From the NCBI RefSeq assembly GCF_001618425.1, contig NZ_BDCU01000008.1, positions 124,001 through 188,000 of the forward strand: DNA of 64,000 nt, read 5' to 3'. Within the stretch, counting starts at the first letter, position 1, and the number at the start of each line of letters is the position of its first letter. Below, piece by piece: positions 13,944-27,540 of this stretch. The notes beneath the pieces were generated by a model that searched no databases, was not told the DNA's origin, and saw only the letters and a program-made list of their open reading frames with translations. The stretch is from Nocardia fusca NBRC 14340 (GTDB taxonomy: Bacteria; Actinomycetota; Actinomycetes; Mycobacteriales; Mycobacteriaceae). A program made the position numbers and the translations under genes.

Positions 13944-14486
13944 TCAATCAGCCACGCCGGTCGCCCGGTTGGTCGTTTCCCGATCGGGTTCCCCGGTAAA
14001 CACGAACTTGTCATAAGCCCAATACCGGAACACCACGGCAACGATCTGACCGACCAATGTTCCAGAGATATTGTCCGCCAGCGGAGTGGCCAGATCCAGG
14101 ATGTACCTGGAAAAACCCAGGCAACCCAATTGCAGTCCGATCGCGATCACATTGATCACCGCGTACAGCAGGTACTCCCGGGCCGGGCTGCCGGACTGCT
14201 TGTGCGAGAAGGTCCACCACTTGTTGCCGAAGTAGGTGACCACCGTGGCCACCGCGATGGCGATGATCTTGGCGGGCAGCGGGACGTCGTGCATGAGACC
14301 CTCGCCACCCCCGGCGCCCAGATCGAACACCAGCAGGTTGTAGGTCCCCGCATCGACCAGGAAGCCGACCACACCGACGACCAGGAACGCCGCACTCTGC
14401 CGCAGTCCGGTCCGCAGGCGTTCGGCGAGCGAACGGGGGGCCGGCGCGTCGGCGGCGACAGCGGCCGTTGACTCACCAGATGACAC
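13944..14486 (-). CDS. GtrA-family membrane protein
   Basis: 180 residues from the GTG at 14486; the frame continues upstream only through the dispersed repeat. After a ~35-residue tail there are four membrane segments beginning with LRQSAAFLVVGVVGFLVDAG, the classic GtrA opening, then KIIAIAVATVVTYFGNKWWTF and two more. GtrA proteins are proposed flippases or organisers for polyprenyl-phosphate sugars. It is divergent from a GtrB-like GT2 and is followed by the GlfT2 paralogue, so it probably works with one or both. Confidence 0.88.
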   Translation of the reverse strand: MSSGESTAAVAADAPAPRSLAERLRTGLRQSAAFLVVGVVGFLVDAGTYNLLVFDLGAGGGEGLMHDVPLPAKIIAIAVATVVTYFGNKWWTFSHKQSGSPAREYLLYAVINVIAIGLQLGCLGFSRYILDLATPLADNISGTLVGQIVAVVFRYWAYDKFVFTGEPDRETTNRATGVAD

Positions 14487-14532
14487 GCGCCGACGGTACC
14501 GCAGTGACCTGAGCCATCCTCTCCGGCACGGC

Positions 14533-14595
14533 ATGAGCGGGTCAGGCCCGGAGGCGGAAGCGCAGCGTAACCACGCAGGGCCCTCGCTCATGCCC
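14533..14595 (+). repeat. Dispersed ~60-bp repeat, copy B (intergenic)
   Basis: A 63-bp copy in the divergent region between gtrA and the GT2 gene, oriented as copies A and C. It contains a potential in-frame ATG but here is not obviously part of a gene. Confidence 0.85.
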
Positions 14596-20234: not shown

Positions 20235-22187
20235 TCAGGCGGGCAACCGGTCGGCGCCCCAGCTGCGGTGGACGTAACCCACCACCCGGTCCAGCTCCTC
20301 CCGGTCCACCGAGGCCAGTTCGCCGGGCTCCAGCGGATCGAAATGGAAGATGTAGAGGCGCGAGGCGAACTGTTCGAACGGCAGCGATGCCTCGCCGAAC
20401 CGTTCGCCGTGCCCGGCGGTGCCGACCACCACGCCGTCTCCCCAGTCCTGCCCGCTGTCGTTGTTCGGATTGTAGAAATAGACCCGCATCCGTTCCTGTG
20501 GGTCCAGTGCCACCCGCAGCACCGTGATCGCGTGCCAGCCGACGAATCGGGCAGCGCTGTCGGTCACCGCGACCCCGGCCGGCTGCGGGTGGATCAGCGG
20601 CTGGTTGCCGTTGTGGAACGGGTGGTAGCTCGCATAGAAATGCCGTAGGAACTCGTCGAGATCGGTCAGGTTACCGGTCGCCACGTCGACATTGATCCGG
20701 AAACCGCGCCCGGACCACCAGCCGTGGAATTCCGGGTTGATCCAGCGGTGCGGGTCGCCCTCCCGATCCACACAGCGCCGCCCCATCTCCGCGTAGATCC
20801 GGTCCAGATGGGGCACAACCAGCAGCGATACGGGGTCCAGGTCCACCGGCAGCTCGGTGGCGAGCCCGGCGGCACTATCGCGCGAGGAGATCGGCTCACC
20901 CTCGAAATGCATGACGATCTCGTCGTCGCGCGCGGCCCAGGCCAGTGTCTGCAGCAGGTAGTCGGGGTCGTTGTAGGCCCACATGGACAACGCCCGCGCG
21001 GACTGACAGGTCGGATTGTCGCCCTGGCCGATACCGAGCGGCAGCCCGAGCACCGACAACATGCCCGCCAGCAACCGGACGCGGGGGGCCGGGTCGGGTC
21101 CGAAGGCCTGGGTCAGCCGCTGCCGCGAATGCGCCGACAGTTGCAGCGCCAGCTGCCGCCACAGGGCGGGGGCGACCGGGGGCTGGTACAGGATGCCGCG
21201 TTCCAGCATCAGTGCCAGCCCGTAGATACACTGCGCCGTCTCGACGTGCACGGCCTCGTCGATCAGTTGTCGCACCAGTTCGTGGTAGCAGAGCAGGCAT
21301 TCGCGCCCGGTACTGGACAAACCCAGCGCCTCGCCCAGCAGGTACTCGCCCTTGCTCAGCAGGAAGCGCAGCAGCACGGCGTGGTACGGCGACACCAGGC
21401 CCGTATCGTGCATCGAGCGCGCGAAACCCGCTGTCTCGTACTGCAACGCGCTGTCGTCCATGGTCTCCAGCCGGGTGCGGTACACCTCGACACCGGGGTC
21501 CTCACGGCAGGAGTCGGTGGTGCCGTACAGGCTGCTGATCAGCCGGTCCGCGCCCAGCCCGCCGGCGCCCAGATCGATATCCGGATTACTGCGTGCCACC
21601 GCGATCTGGGTGATCATCCGTTTCACCGAGTCGACCTGGATCGGGCGCTGCCGCAGGATCCGCCAGATCTCGTCGACCAGATTCTCCAGAACCTTCTCGT
21701 AGCCCACCTCCTCCACCAGGTGGCGCAGCAACTCCCGCGGCACCTGGGCCATCCGGCCCTGCTGGGTCCGCTCGGCTTCGGACGGAGGTGTGAACAGCAG
21801 CGACAGGTTGATGGCGAGCACCTGCGACACGTGGTGGTGGGCCTGCTCCGCGGAGATCTGCGGATGCACGTACGCGCCCTTGGCGACCTCCAGCAACCGT
21901 AGATCGCTCACCGTCTCGAGGACGACGGTGTCCGGGTTGGTGCTGCGCAGCGAGCCGCTGCTCAGCGACGGGATGAGGATCTGCGGGCGCGCCCAGTCGG
22001 TGCCGAGGAACAGTCCGGCGGTATCCAGCCGCGCCGCACGCGACCGCACCGCGGCGCAGCCTCCGGGCAGCAGCAGTACTCGGCGCAGCGCGCCGAATAC
22101 TCGCGACAGCTTGACCTGCTTACCGAAATCACCGGCATCCGCAAGTGCCTGGGTGGCGTCGTCCAATCGGGCCAGATGCCTGTCCAT
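20235..22187 (-). CDS. Large protein with predicted papain-like Cys/His/Asn domain
   Basis: 650 residues from the ATG at 22187, preceded by GGTGGGGAG; a TTG ten codons upstream is less likely. No signal peptide or membrane segment is seen. Residues 1-380 are mostly helical and unlike families I know. The C-terminal region shows an ordered papain-like pattern: GQGDNPTCQSARALS gives Gln388 and Cys394, six residues apart as in papain; FVGWHAITVLR gives His552; and YFYNPNNDSGQDWGDG gives Asn573/575 in a context like the papain N-S-W-G-x-x-W-G segment. This predicts a cysteine protease, amidase or transglutaminase-like enzyme, by my own reading rather than a database match. It lies 69 bases downstream of an ATP-grasp gene. 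Confidence 0.75.
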   Translation of the reverse strand: MDRHLARLDDATQALADAGDFGKQVKLSRVFGALRRVLLLPGGCAAVRSRAARLDTAGLFLGTDWARPQILIPSLSSGSLRSTNPDTVVLETVSDLRLLEVAKGAYVHPQISAEQAHHHVSQVLAINLSLLFTPPSEAERTQQGRMAQVPRELLRHLVEEVGYEKVLENLVDEIWRILRQRPIQVDSVKRMITQIAVARSNPDIDLGAGGLGADRLISSLYGTTDSCREDPGVEVYRTRLETMDDSALQYETAGFARSMHDTGLVSPYHAVLLRFLLSKGEYLLGEALGLSSTGRECLLCYHELVRQLIDEAVHVETAQCIYGLALMLERGILYQPPVAPALWRQLALQLSAHSRQRLTQAFGPDPAPRVRLLAGMLSVLGLPLGIGQGDNPTCQSARALSMWAYNDPDYLLQTLAWAARDDEIVMHFEGEPISSRDSAAGLATELPVDLDPVSLLVVPHLDRIYAEMGRRCVDREGDPHRWINPEFHGWWSGRGFRINVDVATGNLTDLDEFLRHFYASYHPFHNGNQPLIHPQPAGVAVTDSAARFVGWHAITVLRVALDPQERMRVYFYNPNNDSGQDWGDGVVVGTAGHGERFGEASLPFEQFASRLYIFHFDPLEPGELASVDREELDRVVGYVHRSWGADRLPA

Positions 22188-22256
22188 GGACTCCCCACCG
22201 CTGCTGAGTGGACTCAATCGCCGAACCTCCCCGACGAACCCGTTGCCGACAACGGA

Positions 22257-23504
22257 TCAAATATAGAAATCGAGCTCTTCCTGCCTTTTCAACAGGTCCC
22301 GGAGAGTGTACGGGTCCTCCCCGAAGAAGTACAGAAGACCCCAATGGTTTCCGAAAGCCGTACGTTTCATCACTTTTTCGGTCAGCGGAGCGGTGAGCTC
22401 GTGGGAATCGAAATATTCGTGATCTTCGGTCTCCTCCGGGACCGACAATCGGCTGACCACCCGGCGGCGCGGATATACCCCGAATGTGCCCGCATGACCT
22501 TTGGCGTCGACCACCTCCTCCGGGAAGAATGACGTTATCTCCTCTTCCGTCGTCTTGGGGTCGAATGCGAGCACCAGCCCGTGGTATGCGTTGAATCCGT
22601 ACGCCCGCTCCAGCAACTCGAACACCTTGAATCCCGGCGGCCGGTAGGCGACCTCACCGAAATACATCTCGCCGTCACTGGTCACGAAATACTCGGGATG
22701 GACGAATCCGAATTCGATATCGAACGTCTTGATGAGCCGTTCCACCTGGCGAGTTATCTCCGGCCGGTACTTCTCCAATTCCGGGGTCGCCGGGACGAAA
22801 ACAGAGTAGCCGAGTGTCACATATTCCGAAATATTGAGAAAGCGGATCCTACCGTCGTGGATCCATGCCTCGACCGCGAATTCCCAGCCGTCGAGATGGG
22901 ACTCCATCAGTACCGGGAATTCGTCGTCGGGGATGGTCTCGATCTCGTCAGGTGTACGGATGACCCGGTGACCGAGGCAGCCGGCCTTGTCGAACGCCTT
23001 GATATGGATGGGGTCGTTGGGGTCGCCGTCGAGTTTCATCAATGTCTGGTTGACCCGTTTCAGGAAACGGATCACGTCGTCGCGCTCGTGGGCTTCCTCG
23101 AATATTCCGACCCTGATACCGCCGAGCTGTGCGCGCCGTTTCATCAGAGCTTTGTCCCGCAACAGCATGGCCTGGCCGAAGAGCCGCGGGTTGTCCATCA
23201 GTACCGAATTTATGGCCCCCGCCCATTCGACGGTTTCCTCGAAGATCGGGATGGCGACGTCGACACCCATGTCACGCAACGTCTCGGCGATTTCCACCGA
23301 ACGTTCGTTCAGTCTTTCGAAATTCCAGGGGATATATGGTATCCCGTGCTCGGCACAGTATCCCTCCGCCCATTCCGGGGCCACCACCACGTAACGCCTG
23401 TCGAAACGATCTATTGCCTCGACCGCATTGAGACTCCACCCCAAAAGCGCTACATACCCCTTGTCCGGGTTTCGTTTTCTCGCGTCCACAGCCGGAACCG
23501 ACAA
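22257..23504 (-). CDS. ATP-grasp superfamily ligase
   Basis: About 415 residues. A TTG at 23504 is chosen because AGGGGAG precedes it; GTG at 23534 or 23489 are alternatives. The N-terminal pre-ATP-grasp domain starts YVALLGWSLNAVEAIDRFD. The ATP-grasp core has LLRDKALMKRRAQLGGI, the adenine-binding region FPVLMESHLDGWEF and the metal-binding end HPEYFVTSDGEMYFGEVAYRPPG, an E-x-x-x-R variant of E-x-N-x-R. Such enzymes form amide or thioester bonds through acyl-phosphates, often on amino acids or peptides. The DNA is visibly richer in A/T than the neighbours. It is upstream of, and probably co-transcribed with, the papain-like gene. Confidence 0.85.
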   Translation of the reverse strand: MSVPAVDARKRNPDKGYVALLGWSLNAVEAIDRFDRRYVVVAPEWAEGYCAEHGIPYIPWNFERLNERSVEIAETLRDMGVDVAIPIFEETVEWAGAINSVLMDNPRLFGQAMLLRDKALMKRRAQLGGIRVGIFEEAHERDDVIRFLKRVNQTLMKLDGDPNDPIHIKAFDKAGCLGHRVIRTPDEIETIPDDEFPVLMESHLDGWEFAVEAWIHDGRIRFLNISEYVTLGYSVFVPATPELEKYRPEITRQVERLIKTFDIEFGFVHPEYFVTSDGEMYFGEVAYRPPGFKVFELLERAYGFNAYHGLVLAFDPKTTEEEITSFFPEEVVDAKGHAGTFGVYPRRRVVSRLSVPEETEDHEYFDSHELTAPLTEKVMKRTAFGNHWGLLYFFGEDPYTLRDLLKRQEELDFYI

Positions 23505-23848
23505 AGCCTCTCCCCTCTCAATCCTATTTCGCACCTATCAGATCTCGAGGGCGCAATATCACGGCCGTACACGGAAAACCGCACCGGCACGGAATTCGGG
23601 CGGATACTCGACCGAATCCTCAACAAAAATATCGAGACGGATCTGGATCGGACCCCTGTATCGCCCTCATTCTCGGTGAGTACCCAGGAAAGCGCGCCAC
23701 CAAACGGCGCCGGGGCGCAGCGGGCCGGCCCACCGCGCGGTGGCGGCGCGCTCGCCCCCGGGACCGGCCCCGGCCCGCCGCACTCGACGGCGCGGCGAAG
23801 TACCGCCGCACGCAGCCGCACTCACCCGGGCTGGCACACTGACCGAAC
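23505..23848. other. Divergent intergenic region (ATP-grasp / rmlA)
   Basis: 344 bases between divergent genes. The part nearest the ATP-grasp gene (about 23530-23680) is A/T-richer than the window and contains AACAAAAATATCG, a plausible promoter region for that pair. The part nearest rmlA (23690-23830) is very GC-rich. I found no convincing small precursor-peptide gene on either strand. Confidence 0.5.
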
Positions 23849-26840: not shown

Positions 26841-27425
26841 CTAGCGGATACGGAAGATGACCAGGCGCTGGACCACGAAGTTGATCACCGTGGCCGTGCC
26901 CTGCGCGATCACGTAGGCCAGCGGGACGCGCCACCACAGTCCCTCGTCGAAGGCGTGGTAGCAGACCCAGTTGATACCCACCTGGACGCAGAAGGTCAGC
27001 GCGTACAGGATCACCACCGCGATGAAACGGGCCCGGCTCGGGGCCGCGTTGAAGGTCCACCGGCGGTTGATCAGATAAGCGGTCGTGGTGCCGGCGATGA
27101 AACCGATCGCCTTGGCCGGGTTGACCGGCAGCCCCACCACCTCGAGCAGCAGCACGTACAGCCCGAAGTCGACCACGGCCGACAGCGCCCCGGTGATGGC
27201 GAACCGCACCAGCTGGGTCACCAGACCGATCTGTGCGCTCCCGGATCCGGCATCGTCCGGCTCGCTGACGGCGACGGCCGGCTCCTCGGCCGCGACGGAA
27301 ACATCCCCGGTGCCGCCCGGCGTCACCCGGGGGCTCCGGCTCACTGCGTTGCTTTCAGGGCCCACCGACGGAAATGTACTTGTCCAGCGGCGCCCGCGGG
27401 CCCGCGGGTGCAGTCGACCGTTCAT
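26841..27425 (-). CDS. GtrA-family protein, Rv3789-like
   Basis: 194 residues from the ATG at 27425; the first ~70 are variable, so a later GTG may be the true start. Four membrane segments begin with QLVRFAITGALSAVVDFGLY and include KAIGFIAGTTTAYLINRRWTF, then two more ending in NFVVQRLVIFRIR. It sits divergent from dprE1, as Rv3789 sits beside dprE1 in M. tuberculosis. Rv3789 has been discussed as a flippase for decaprenyl-phosphoryl-arabinose or as an anchor for arabinosyltransferases; the exact role is unsettled. Confidence 0.85.
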   Translation of the reverse strand: MNGRLHPRARGRRWTSTFPSVGPESNAVSRSPRVTPGGTGDVSVAAEEPAVAVSEPDDAGSGSAQIGLVTQLVRFAITGALSAVVDFGLYVLLLEVVGLPVNPAKAIGFIAGTTTAYLINRRWTFNAAPSRARFIAVVILYALTFCVQVGINWVCYHAFDEGLWWRVPLAYVIAQGTATVINFVVQRLVIFRIR

Positions 27426-27540
27426 AGACCGGCGACCATCGAGCACTTACAGTGCCGTCAACCTACCCAAGCTGCTCGACGTGCAGGCCCCACACACCTT
27501 CCGCCTACTCCGGATGGTCCACCTTTATGGTGGGGCCCGC

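What the first reader, a model, noticed from the sequence alone, without database searches (positions are those of the whole stretch)
20235..23504. Two-gene operon: ATP-grasp ligase plus papain-like protein
The minus-strand pair lies within a dTDP-rhamnose gene region. The larger protein has Gln388, Cys394, His552 and Asn573/575 in the order and local context of papain-like enzymes (Gln-Cys spacing of six, then G-W-H-A, then N-x-N-x-x-S-G-x-x-W-G). Next to an ATP-grasp enzyme this suggests a ligation and cleavage or transfer system acting on a peptide, amino acid or cell-wall substrate. The first 390 residues of the large protein match nothing I recognise. It is the best candidate here for an undescribed system.
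Basis: partly seen in the sequence, partly recalled or inferred. Interest (0 to 1): 0.82.

Follow-up and report, generated by a model that had tools for sequence, protein, structure and literature searches.

The report
Ectoine-linked ligase and papain-fold enzyme pair
Two neighbouring genes, shared by Nocardia and many salt-adapted bacteria and seen in our tests only in genomes that also carry the gene for the salt-protecting molecule ectoine, are predicted to encode a ligase and a papain-like enzyme that likely build and cut an amide bond in a small molecule used against osmotic stress; our paper searches found no description of the pair.

Summary

The interpretation shifts. The dTDP-rhamnose setting is local: 9 of 80 loci, all Nocardia. 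Ectoine synthase (ectC) was found in every pair-bearing genome tested; most of that is expected by lineage, but in a gammaproteobacterial draw 6 of 6 pair genomes have it against 29 of 231. One distant relative has the pair in a run with a deacetylase and ectC; others adjoin a deacetylase, a mechanosensitive channel or a BCCT transporter.

Best reading: a transferable accessory module of ectoine-based osmoadaptation in which the ATP-grasp enzyme likely makes an amide-linked amino-acid derivative and the papain-like enzyme cuts or transfers it. Substrate unknown. The main rival is a general salt-habitat association (BCCT control: 5 of 6 against 53 of 231).

The parts
22257..23504 (-). ATP-grasp-like gene (415 aa as read by the finder; an in-frame GTG lies 10 codons upstream at 23534), first gene of the pair
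   Evidence: PF13535 E 3.1e-5, below cut-off; profile nearest to L-amino acid ligases 3vot (E 0.0035) and 4wd3; 79-99% identity to 27 aligned relatives
20235..22187 (-). 650-codon gene for the papain-like protein (a TTG at 22217 would add 10 residues), second gene of the pair
   Evidence: no Pfam, NCBIfam or PDB sequence match at E<=1; at least 2,726 database relatives
21123..22187 (-). N-terminal helical domain, about residues 1-355, no fold assigned
   Evidence: model; not folded or searched alone
20331..21122 (-). C-terminal papain-like domain, about residues 356-619
21024..21026 (-). Gln388, expected oxyanion-hole residue
   Evidence: 357 of 358 sequences
21006..21008 (-). Cys394, expected nucleophile
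   Evidence: 358 of 358
20532..20534 (-). His552, expected general base
   Evidence: 358 of 358
20469..20471 (-). Asn573, expected third catalytic residue
   Evidence: 358 of 358

Best explanation
The two genes form a conserved pair that has moved between bacterial phyla and was seen only in ectoine-synthase-carrying genomes among those tested, and they are predicted to act together as an amide ligase (ATP-grasp) and an amide-cleaving or amide-transferring enzyme (papain-like) on a small amino-acid compound, likely one tied to the ectoine osmotic response. Shown: the pairing, the invariant Cys-His-Asn and near-invariant Gln, the spread across phyla, the co-occurrence with ectC, and one run of genes that includes ectC. 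Predicted: the papain-like fold. Inferred: the ATP-grasp enzyme activates a carboxylate with ATP and couples it to an amine, as L-amino acid ligases do; the Cys of the partner forms an acyl-enzyme on that amide or a related one and hydrolyses it or passes it to another amine. The ligase would dominate when solute must rise and the papain-like enzyme when it must fall, by analogy with glutathionylspermidine synthetase/amidase. The substrate is unknown; N-gamma-acetyl-diaminobutyrate, diaminobutyrate and ectoine itself are the leading guesses, because the genes linked in some lineages are ectC and an HDAC-type deacetylase, a class that acts on N-acetylated amines.
For: Adjacent in 79 of 80 named loci and 25 of 25 further fetched loci L140-L164. 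Catalytic residues invariant. Papain-like fold prediction. ATP-grasp profile nearest to L-amino acid ligases, weakly. ectC over cut-off in 30 of 30 and 44 of 44 pair genomes, in 7 of 7 pair genomes of a 232-genome gammaproteobacterial draw where 30 have ectC (6 of 6 against 29 of 231 without the centre, P 2.4e-6), and in 30 of 30 of a 121-genome family draw where 105 have ectC (P 0.008 without the centre). G711: papain-like gene, HDAC-type deacetylase, ATP-grasp gene, ectC on one strand. Deacetylase next to the pair in L163 and L084; mechanosensitive channel next to it in L089, L096, L097, L162 and BCCT transporter in L162.
Confidence: 0.45

Rival explanations
1. Salt-habitat passenger: the pair serves osmotic or ionic stress in general, and ectC co-occurs only because both mark salt-adapted or osmotolerant genomes. 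The chemistry may still be ligation and cleavage.
For: BCCT osmolyte transporters are also enriched among pair genomes (6 of 7 against 54 of 232; P 0.0027 without the centre). In most loci the pair is not linked to ect genes. Mechanosensitive channel and BCCT neighbours fit any osmolyte.
Against: ectC is the sharper marker (P 2.4e-6). G711 has BCCT absent and ectC in the same run. Soil and host-associated actinomycetes carry the pair.
Confidence: 0.3
2. Two serial biosynthetic steps: the ATP-grasp enzyme joins or loads an amino acid and the papain-like protein is an acyltransferase or transpeptidase (as recalled for butirosin BtrJ and BtrH), together making an undescribed compatible solute.
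For: Stable two-gene unit without other conserved partners; many invariant polar residues besides the triad (His460, Asp462, His480, Arg558, Gln580).
Against: No carrier protein or exporter recurs beside the pair. The Pfam scan at E<=1 gave the large protein no acyltransferase family.
Confidence: 0.25
3. Protein modification cycle: the ATP-grasp enzyme adds residues to a protein and the papain-like enzyme removes them, as RimK and RimB do to a ribosomal protein.
For: RimK/RimB and the rlo operon join ATP-grasp proteins, peptidases and, for rlo, osmotic stress tolerance (PMC12239564, passages read). The nearest solved folds are proteases.
Against: No conserved third gene offers a target. Neither Pfam nor NCBIfam named a RimK model for the ATP-grasp protein at E<=1.
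Confidence: 0.12
4. Cell-wall or rhamnose-linked enzyme pair, as the genomic setting in this window suggests.
For: The pair lies between rmlB- and rmlA-like genes here and near both in 9 Nocardia loci.
Against: Homologues of these two genes were not found near the other 71 of 80 named loci; hosts span Gram-positive and Gram-negative groups.
Confidence: 0.03

Closest known systems
Glutathionylspermidine synthetase/amidase (Gsp)
   Same: An ATP-dependent amide ligase combined with a papain-fold (CHAP) amidase that reverses it (recalled; CHAP listing seen in PMC10318531)
   Different: Gsp is one fused protein; here two genes, no CHAP match, nearest fold calpain, a large extra helical domain, other hosts
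L-amino acid ligases (BL00235, RizA) of the ATP-grasp superfamily
   Same: Nearest solved relatives of the ATP-grasp profile; the E-V-x-x-R stretch aligns
   Different: Similarity is weak (E 0.0035); substrate unknown; constant papain-like partner
Calpain and staphopain (papain-like cysteine proteases)
   Same: Best structural matches of residues 356-619; Gln, Cys, His, Asn in the same order, Gln and Cys six apart (motif recalled)
   Different: No sequence match to PF00648 or any PDB chain; cytoplasmic bacterial protein by appearance; N-terminal domain unassigned
rlo operon and RimK/RimB of Pseudomonas
   Same: ATP-grasp protein with a peptidase or papain-fold relative and, for rlo, osmotic stress tolerance (PMC12239564, passages)
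   Different: Aspartic peptidase and inactive membrane transglutaminase there; a Cys-His-Asn enzyme here; no 7TM protein
Butirosin BtrJ/BtrH (recalled)
   Same: ATP-grasp ligase with a papain-like acyltransferase
   Different: Needs a carrier protein and a large cluster; no BtrH-type Pfam match here
ectABC(D) ectoine pathway
   Same: Found in the same genomes in every case tested; ectC in one run with the pair
   Different: The pair is usually unlinked to ect genes, is missing from 23 of 30 ectC genomes of the gammaproteobacterial draw, and is no step of the pathway as I know it

Membership tests
Papain-like (clan CA) cysteine enzymes | Cys, His, Asn in order with a Gln before the Cys | tested here: met
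   C, H, N in 358 of 358; Q in 357 of 358
Papain-like (clan CA) cysteine enzymes | Papain-like fold | tested here: met
Papain-like (clan CA) cysteine enzymes | Cysteine-dependent hydrolase or transferase activity | not testable with these tools
   Needs assay
Calpain family (PF00648) | Sequence match to the family model | tested here: not met
   No Pfam family at E<=1
ATP-grasp superfamily | ATP-grasp domain by profile | tested here: inconclusive
   PF13535 E 3.1e-5 but 24.1 bits against cut-off 27; NCBIfam PRK07206.1 E 1.4e-5, far below cut-off; model too poor to search
L-amino acid ligase | Clear homology to a proven ligase | tested here: inconclusive
   3vot E 0.0035, 4wd3 E 0.0053, also a phosphoribosylglycinamide synthetase 4dim E 0.0036
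L-amino acid ligase | ATP-dependent amino acid ligation | not testable with these tools
   Needs assay
Glutathionylspermidine synthetase/amidase | CHAP amidase fused to the synthetase | tested here: not met
   Two separate genes; no CHAP match
Rlo / RimBK systems | RimB-like aspartic peptidase or 7TM inactive transglutaminase with the ATP-grasp gene | tested here: not met
   Partner is a different protein with no Pfam match
Ectoine-dependent module | ectC present wherever the pair is | tested here: met
   72 of 72 named genomes tested (of 80), G340, G418, 7 of 7 gammaproteobacteria, 30 of 30 in a family draw; the sets overlap
Ectoine-dependent module | Acts on ectoine or a precursor | not testable with these tools
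   Needs metabolomics and enzyme assay

The most novel reading that the evidence does not exclude
The pair makes and recycles an undiscovered conjugate of ectoine or of its precursor diaminobutyrate: a hidden branch of ectoine metabolism shared by Nocardia, Mycolicibacter, Halomonas, Marinobacter and purple bacteria and passed between phyla as a two-gene unit.
Probability: 0.3. Interest if true: 0.85.

Novelty: new variant of a known kind. Interest (0 to 1): 0.62.

Why it matters
Ectoine is one of the best studied bacterial stress protectants and its pathway is generally treated as complete. A highly conserved enzyme pair that we met only in ectoine-synthase genomes would, if the tie is causal, mean a missing reaction or product. 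It is directly testable: delete the pair and compare salt-grown metabolomes with and without ectoine genes. It also adds a large papain-like family with an unassigned helical domain that no Pfam or NCBIfam model covers.

Tried and rejected
Rejected: rhamnose or cell-wall context (rml genes near 9 of 80 named loci). Rejected as a requirement: hydroxyectoine (ectD over cut-off in 3 of 7 gammaproteobacterial pair genomes and in 4 of the 23 ectC genomes of that draw without the pair; none in G622 and G644, below cut-off in G624 and G711). Phage cargo: no match in phage records, none confirmed among 76 pattern matches in viral contigs; one plasmid record of 72,556, a 1.8-Mb Halomonas PA16-9 replicon. 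Dropped: N-carbamoyl-glutamine amide as product, a solute named without genes in the passages of PMC7824335 that I read; I have no evidence that its producers carry the pair. Dropped: hydrocarbon degradation (Alcanivorax, Marinobacter and Rhodococcus are hosts), since Halomonas, Roseospira and Methylotuvimicrobium are hosts too.

Led nowhere: PDB sequence searches with the large protein and its profile; Foldseek; the N-terminal domain was not folded alone and got no clear assignment; the ATP-grasp model (pLDDT 62) was not searched. Neighbour clustering found no conserved third gene; the commonest families within 10 kb were an ABC-type ATPase family (25 of 81 loci) and a short-chain dehydrogenase family (11 of 81), both very large families by appearance. 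Clusters of frames overlapping the pair were set aside.

Papers: searches listed none that describes this pair (listings seen; most subscription papers are not held). Passages read: PMC7824335, PMC13307308, PMC12239564, PMC10318531, PMC5924519. PMC3268129 (Iyer 2009, amidoligases) is not held; I know it from memory and reference lists only, so it may already mention such pairs.

Limits: one search kept the best 80 of at least 589 relatives, so named hosts lean to close kin; the homologue lists show 120 of 2,726 and 120 of 2,717. ectC was tested in 72 of the 80 named genomes; not tested: L052, L054, L060, L062, L063, L071, L077, L104. In some searches only the papain-like protein was searched; its ATP-grasp neighbour was checked in the loci then fetched. 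G276, a weak hit (E 1.5e-4), was not counted as a pair genome, and ectC was not sought in it. Chance numbers for the channel, transporter and deacetylase neighbours were not computed.

Full report
What is there. By this protein the window's nearest named relatives are Nocardia rhamnosiphila, N. testacea and N. sienata (96-98% identity). On the minus strand an ATP-grasp-like gene (22257-23504) is followed after 69 nt by a 650-codon gene (20235-22187). Neither Pfam nor NCBIfam has a model that matches the large protein at E<=1, and no PDB chain does by sequence. The smaller protein matches ATP-grasp_4 below its cut-off.

The pair. The ATP-grasp gene lies directly upstream in 79 of 80 named loci (cut by the contig end in L094 and L096) and in 25 of 25 further fetched loci, L140-L164. 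In the 396-genome phylum draw the strong hits of both proteins fall in the same four genomes, one of them the window's own; in one of these, G418, the ATP-grasp gene is split between two contigs. Exceptions: L111 shows no ATP-grasp gene in its 22-kb locus, and of two copies in G634 one (L137) shows none and the other (L136) has it convergent. The ATP-grasp protein keeps 79-99% identity in 27 aligned relatives and 74-86% in the more distant loci.

Spread. At least 2,726 database proteins and 589 genome loci belong to the family. Distribution is patchy: 13 of 60 near relatives with the window's own genome counted, 30 of 121 in a family-level draw around Mycolicibacter sinensis, 7 of 232 gammaproteobacteria with the centre counted. 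Named hosts include Halomonas, Vreelandella, Chromohalobacter, Aidingimonas, Marinobacter, Marinimicrobium, Guyparkeria, Haloechinothrix, Dietzia, Saccharopolyspora and Mycolicibacter, and further out Roseospira, Roseospirillum, Caenispirillum salinarum, Methylohalobius, Methylotuvimicrobium alcaliphilum, Alcanivorax and Rhabdothermincola salaria. That many of these are salt-adapted is general knowledge, not a call. A tree of 48 of the 358 sequences needs 5 changes between three labels (Actinomycetota, Alphaproteobacteria, and the rest, nearly all Gammaproteobacteria) where 2 would do, so the gene has moved between such groups.

The ectoine tie. Ectoine synthase (PF06339, over cut-off) was found in 30 of 30 and 44 of 44 pair-bearing genomes and in none of 14 control genomes. 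Much of this is expected by lineage: 35 of 36 genomes of the window's own genus have ectC, 13 of them with the pair. The informative test is the gammaproteobacterial draw: 30 of 232 have ectC over cut-off and all 7 with the pair are among them; without the centre genome 6 of 6 against 29 of 231, P 2.4e-6. In the family draw it is 30 of 30 against 105 of 121, P 0.008 without the centre. A control for osmotic lifestyle, the BCCT transporter family, gives 6 of 7 against 54 of 232, P 0.0027 without the centre. So ectC is the sharper marker, but habitat is not excluded, and the rows are not phylogenetically independent. Hydroxylase ectD is not required: 3 of 7 pair genomes over cut-off.

Physical links. 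In G711, a distant relative (45% identity), one strand carries the papain-like gene, an HDAC-type deacetylase, the ATP-grasp gene and ectC, where the contig ends. That ectC is 90% identical over 125 residues to the ectC inside an ectABC cluster of G634; whether G711 has ectAB was not tested. HDAC-type deacetylases also follow the pair in L163 and L084; the best PDB matches of the L163 one are HDAC6 and bacterial HDAC-like amidohydrolases. Among the 80 named loci only L117 has ectC in its flanks, about 1.9 kb from the pair beside a fragment of ectB. Mechanosensitive channel genes adjoin the pair in L089, L096, L097 and L162 and lie about 0.7-9 kb away in 22 of 26 Halomonadaceae loci, probably one inherited arrangement; a BCCT transporter is directly downstream in L162. 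No third gene is conserved across the host groups.

How it may work. ATP-grasp enzymes join a carboxylate to an amine through an acyl phosphate (established knowledge). The profile's nearest PDB chains are L-amino acid ligases and a phosphoribosylglycinamide synthetase, all weak (E 0.0035-0.0053). The ligase's E-V-x-x-R stretch aligns with the invariant E-V-A-Y-R of this family, so the lack there of the usual Asn (recalled) need not mean inactivity. A papain-like Cys-His-Asn enzyme hydrolyses or transfers acyl groups. A ligase with a papain-fold amidase is known from glutathionylspermidine synthetase/amidase (recalled; CHAP listing in PMC10318531), and ligase-protease antagonism from RimK/RimB, with an osmotic phenotype for the related rlo peptidases (PMC12239564, passages). 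I therefore commit to a make-and-break pair acting on an amino-acid-type amide within ectoine osmoadaptation. The ectC and deacetylase neighbours point to N-acetyl-diaminobutyrate chemistry, but substrate, direction and regulation are all inferred.

Verdict. Neither ordinary nor an artefact: a large uncharacterised two-gene family whose parts are of known kinds, with a testable association to ectoine that we did not find in print.

Noticed in passing
L177:9041-12549 (Halomonas socia): Directly after ectABC lies an rlo-like run: a short lipoprotein-like frame (by eye, not scanned), an inactive transglutaminase with 7 TM helices (PF14400/PF14402) and an ATP-grasp protein (PF14397). rlo peptidases are tied to osmotic stress in Pseudomonas (PMC12239564).
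   Followed up: partly
L138:7289-7756 (G634): A second ectC without ectA or ectB matches in its 16-kb locus, beside a complete ectABC elsewhere in that genome. PMC5924519 calls the function of such solitary ectC genes unsettled (passages).
   Followed up: partly
L178:6688-7151 (Halomonas socia): A divergent ectC-like stretch beside a 26-residue match to ectA.
   Followed up: no
L136:5571-6617 (G634): An aliphatic amidase (NCBIfam NF009802 over cut-off) lies about 2.7 kb upstream of the divergent papain-like gene.
   Followed up: partly
L046 and L048: The Halomonas PA16-9 large gene loses similarity at its C-terminus and the N. testacea ATP-grasp gene matches in two frames; sequencing error or decay not told apart.
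   Followed up: no
window 13944-14591 and 26841-27446, minus strand: Two small predicted membrane proteins that look alike (GtrA-type by eye) flank the sugar-nucleotide region; no search was run on them.
   Followed up: no
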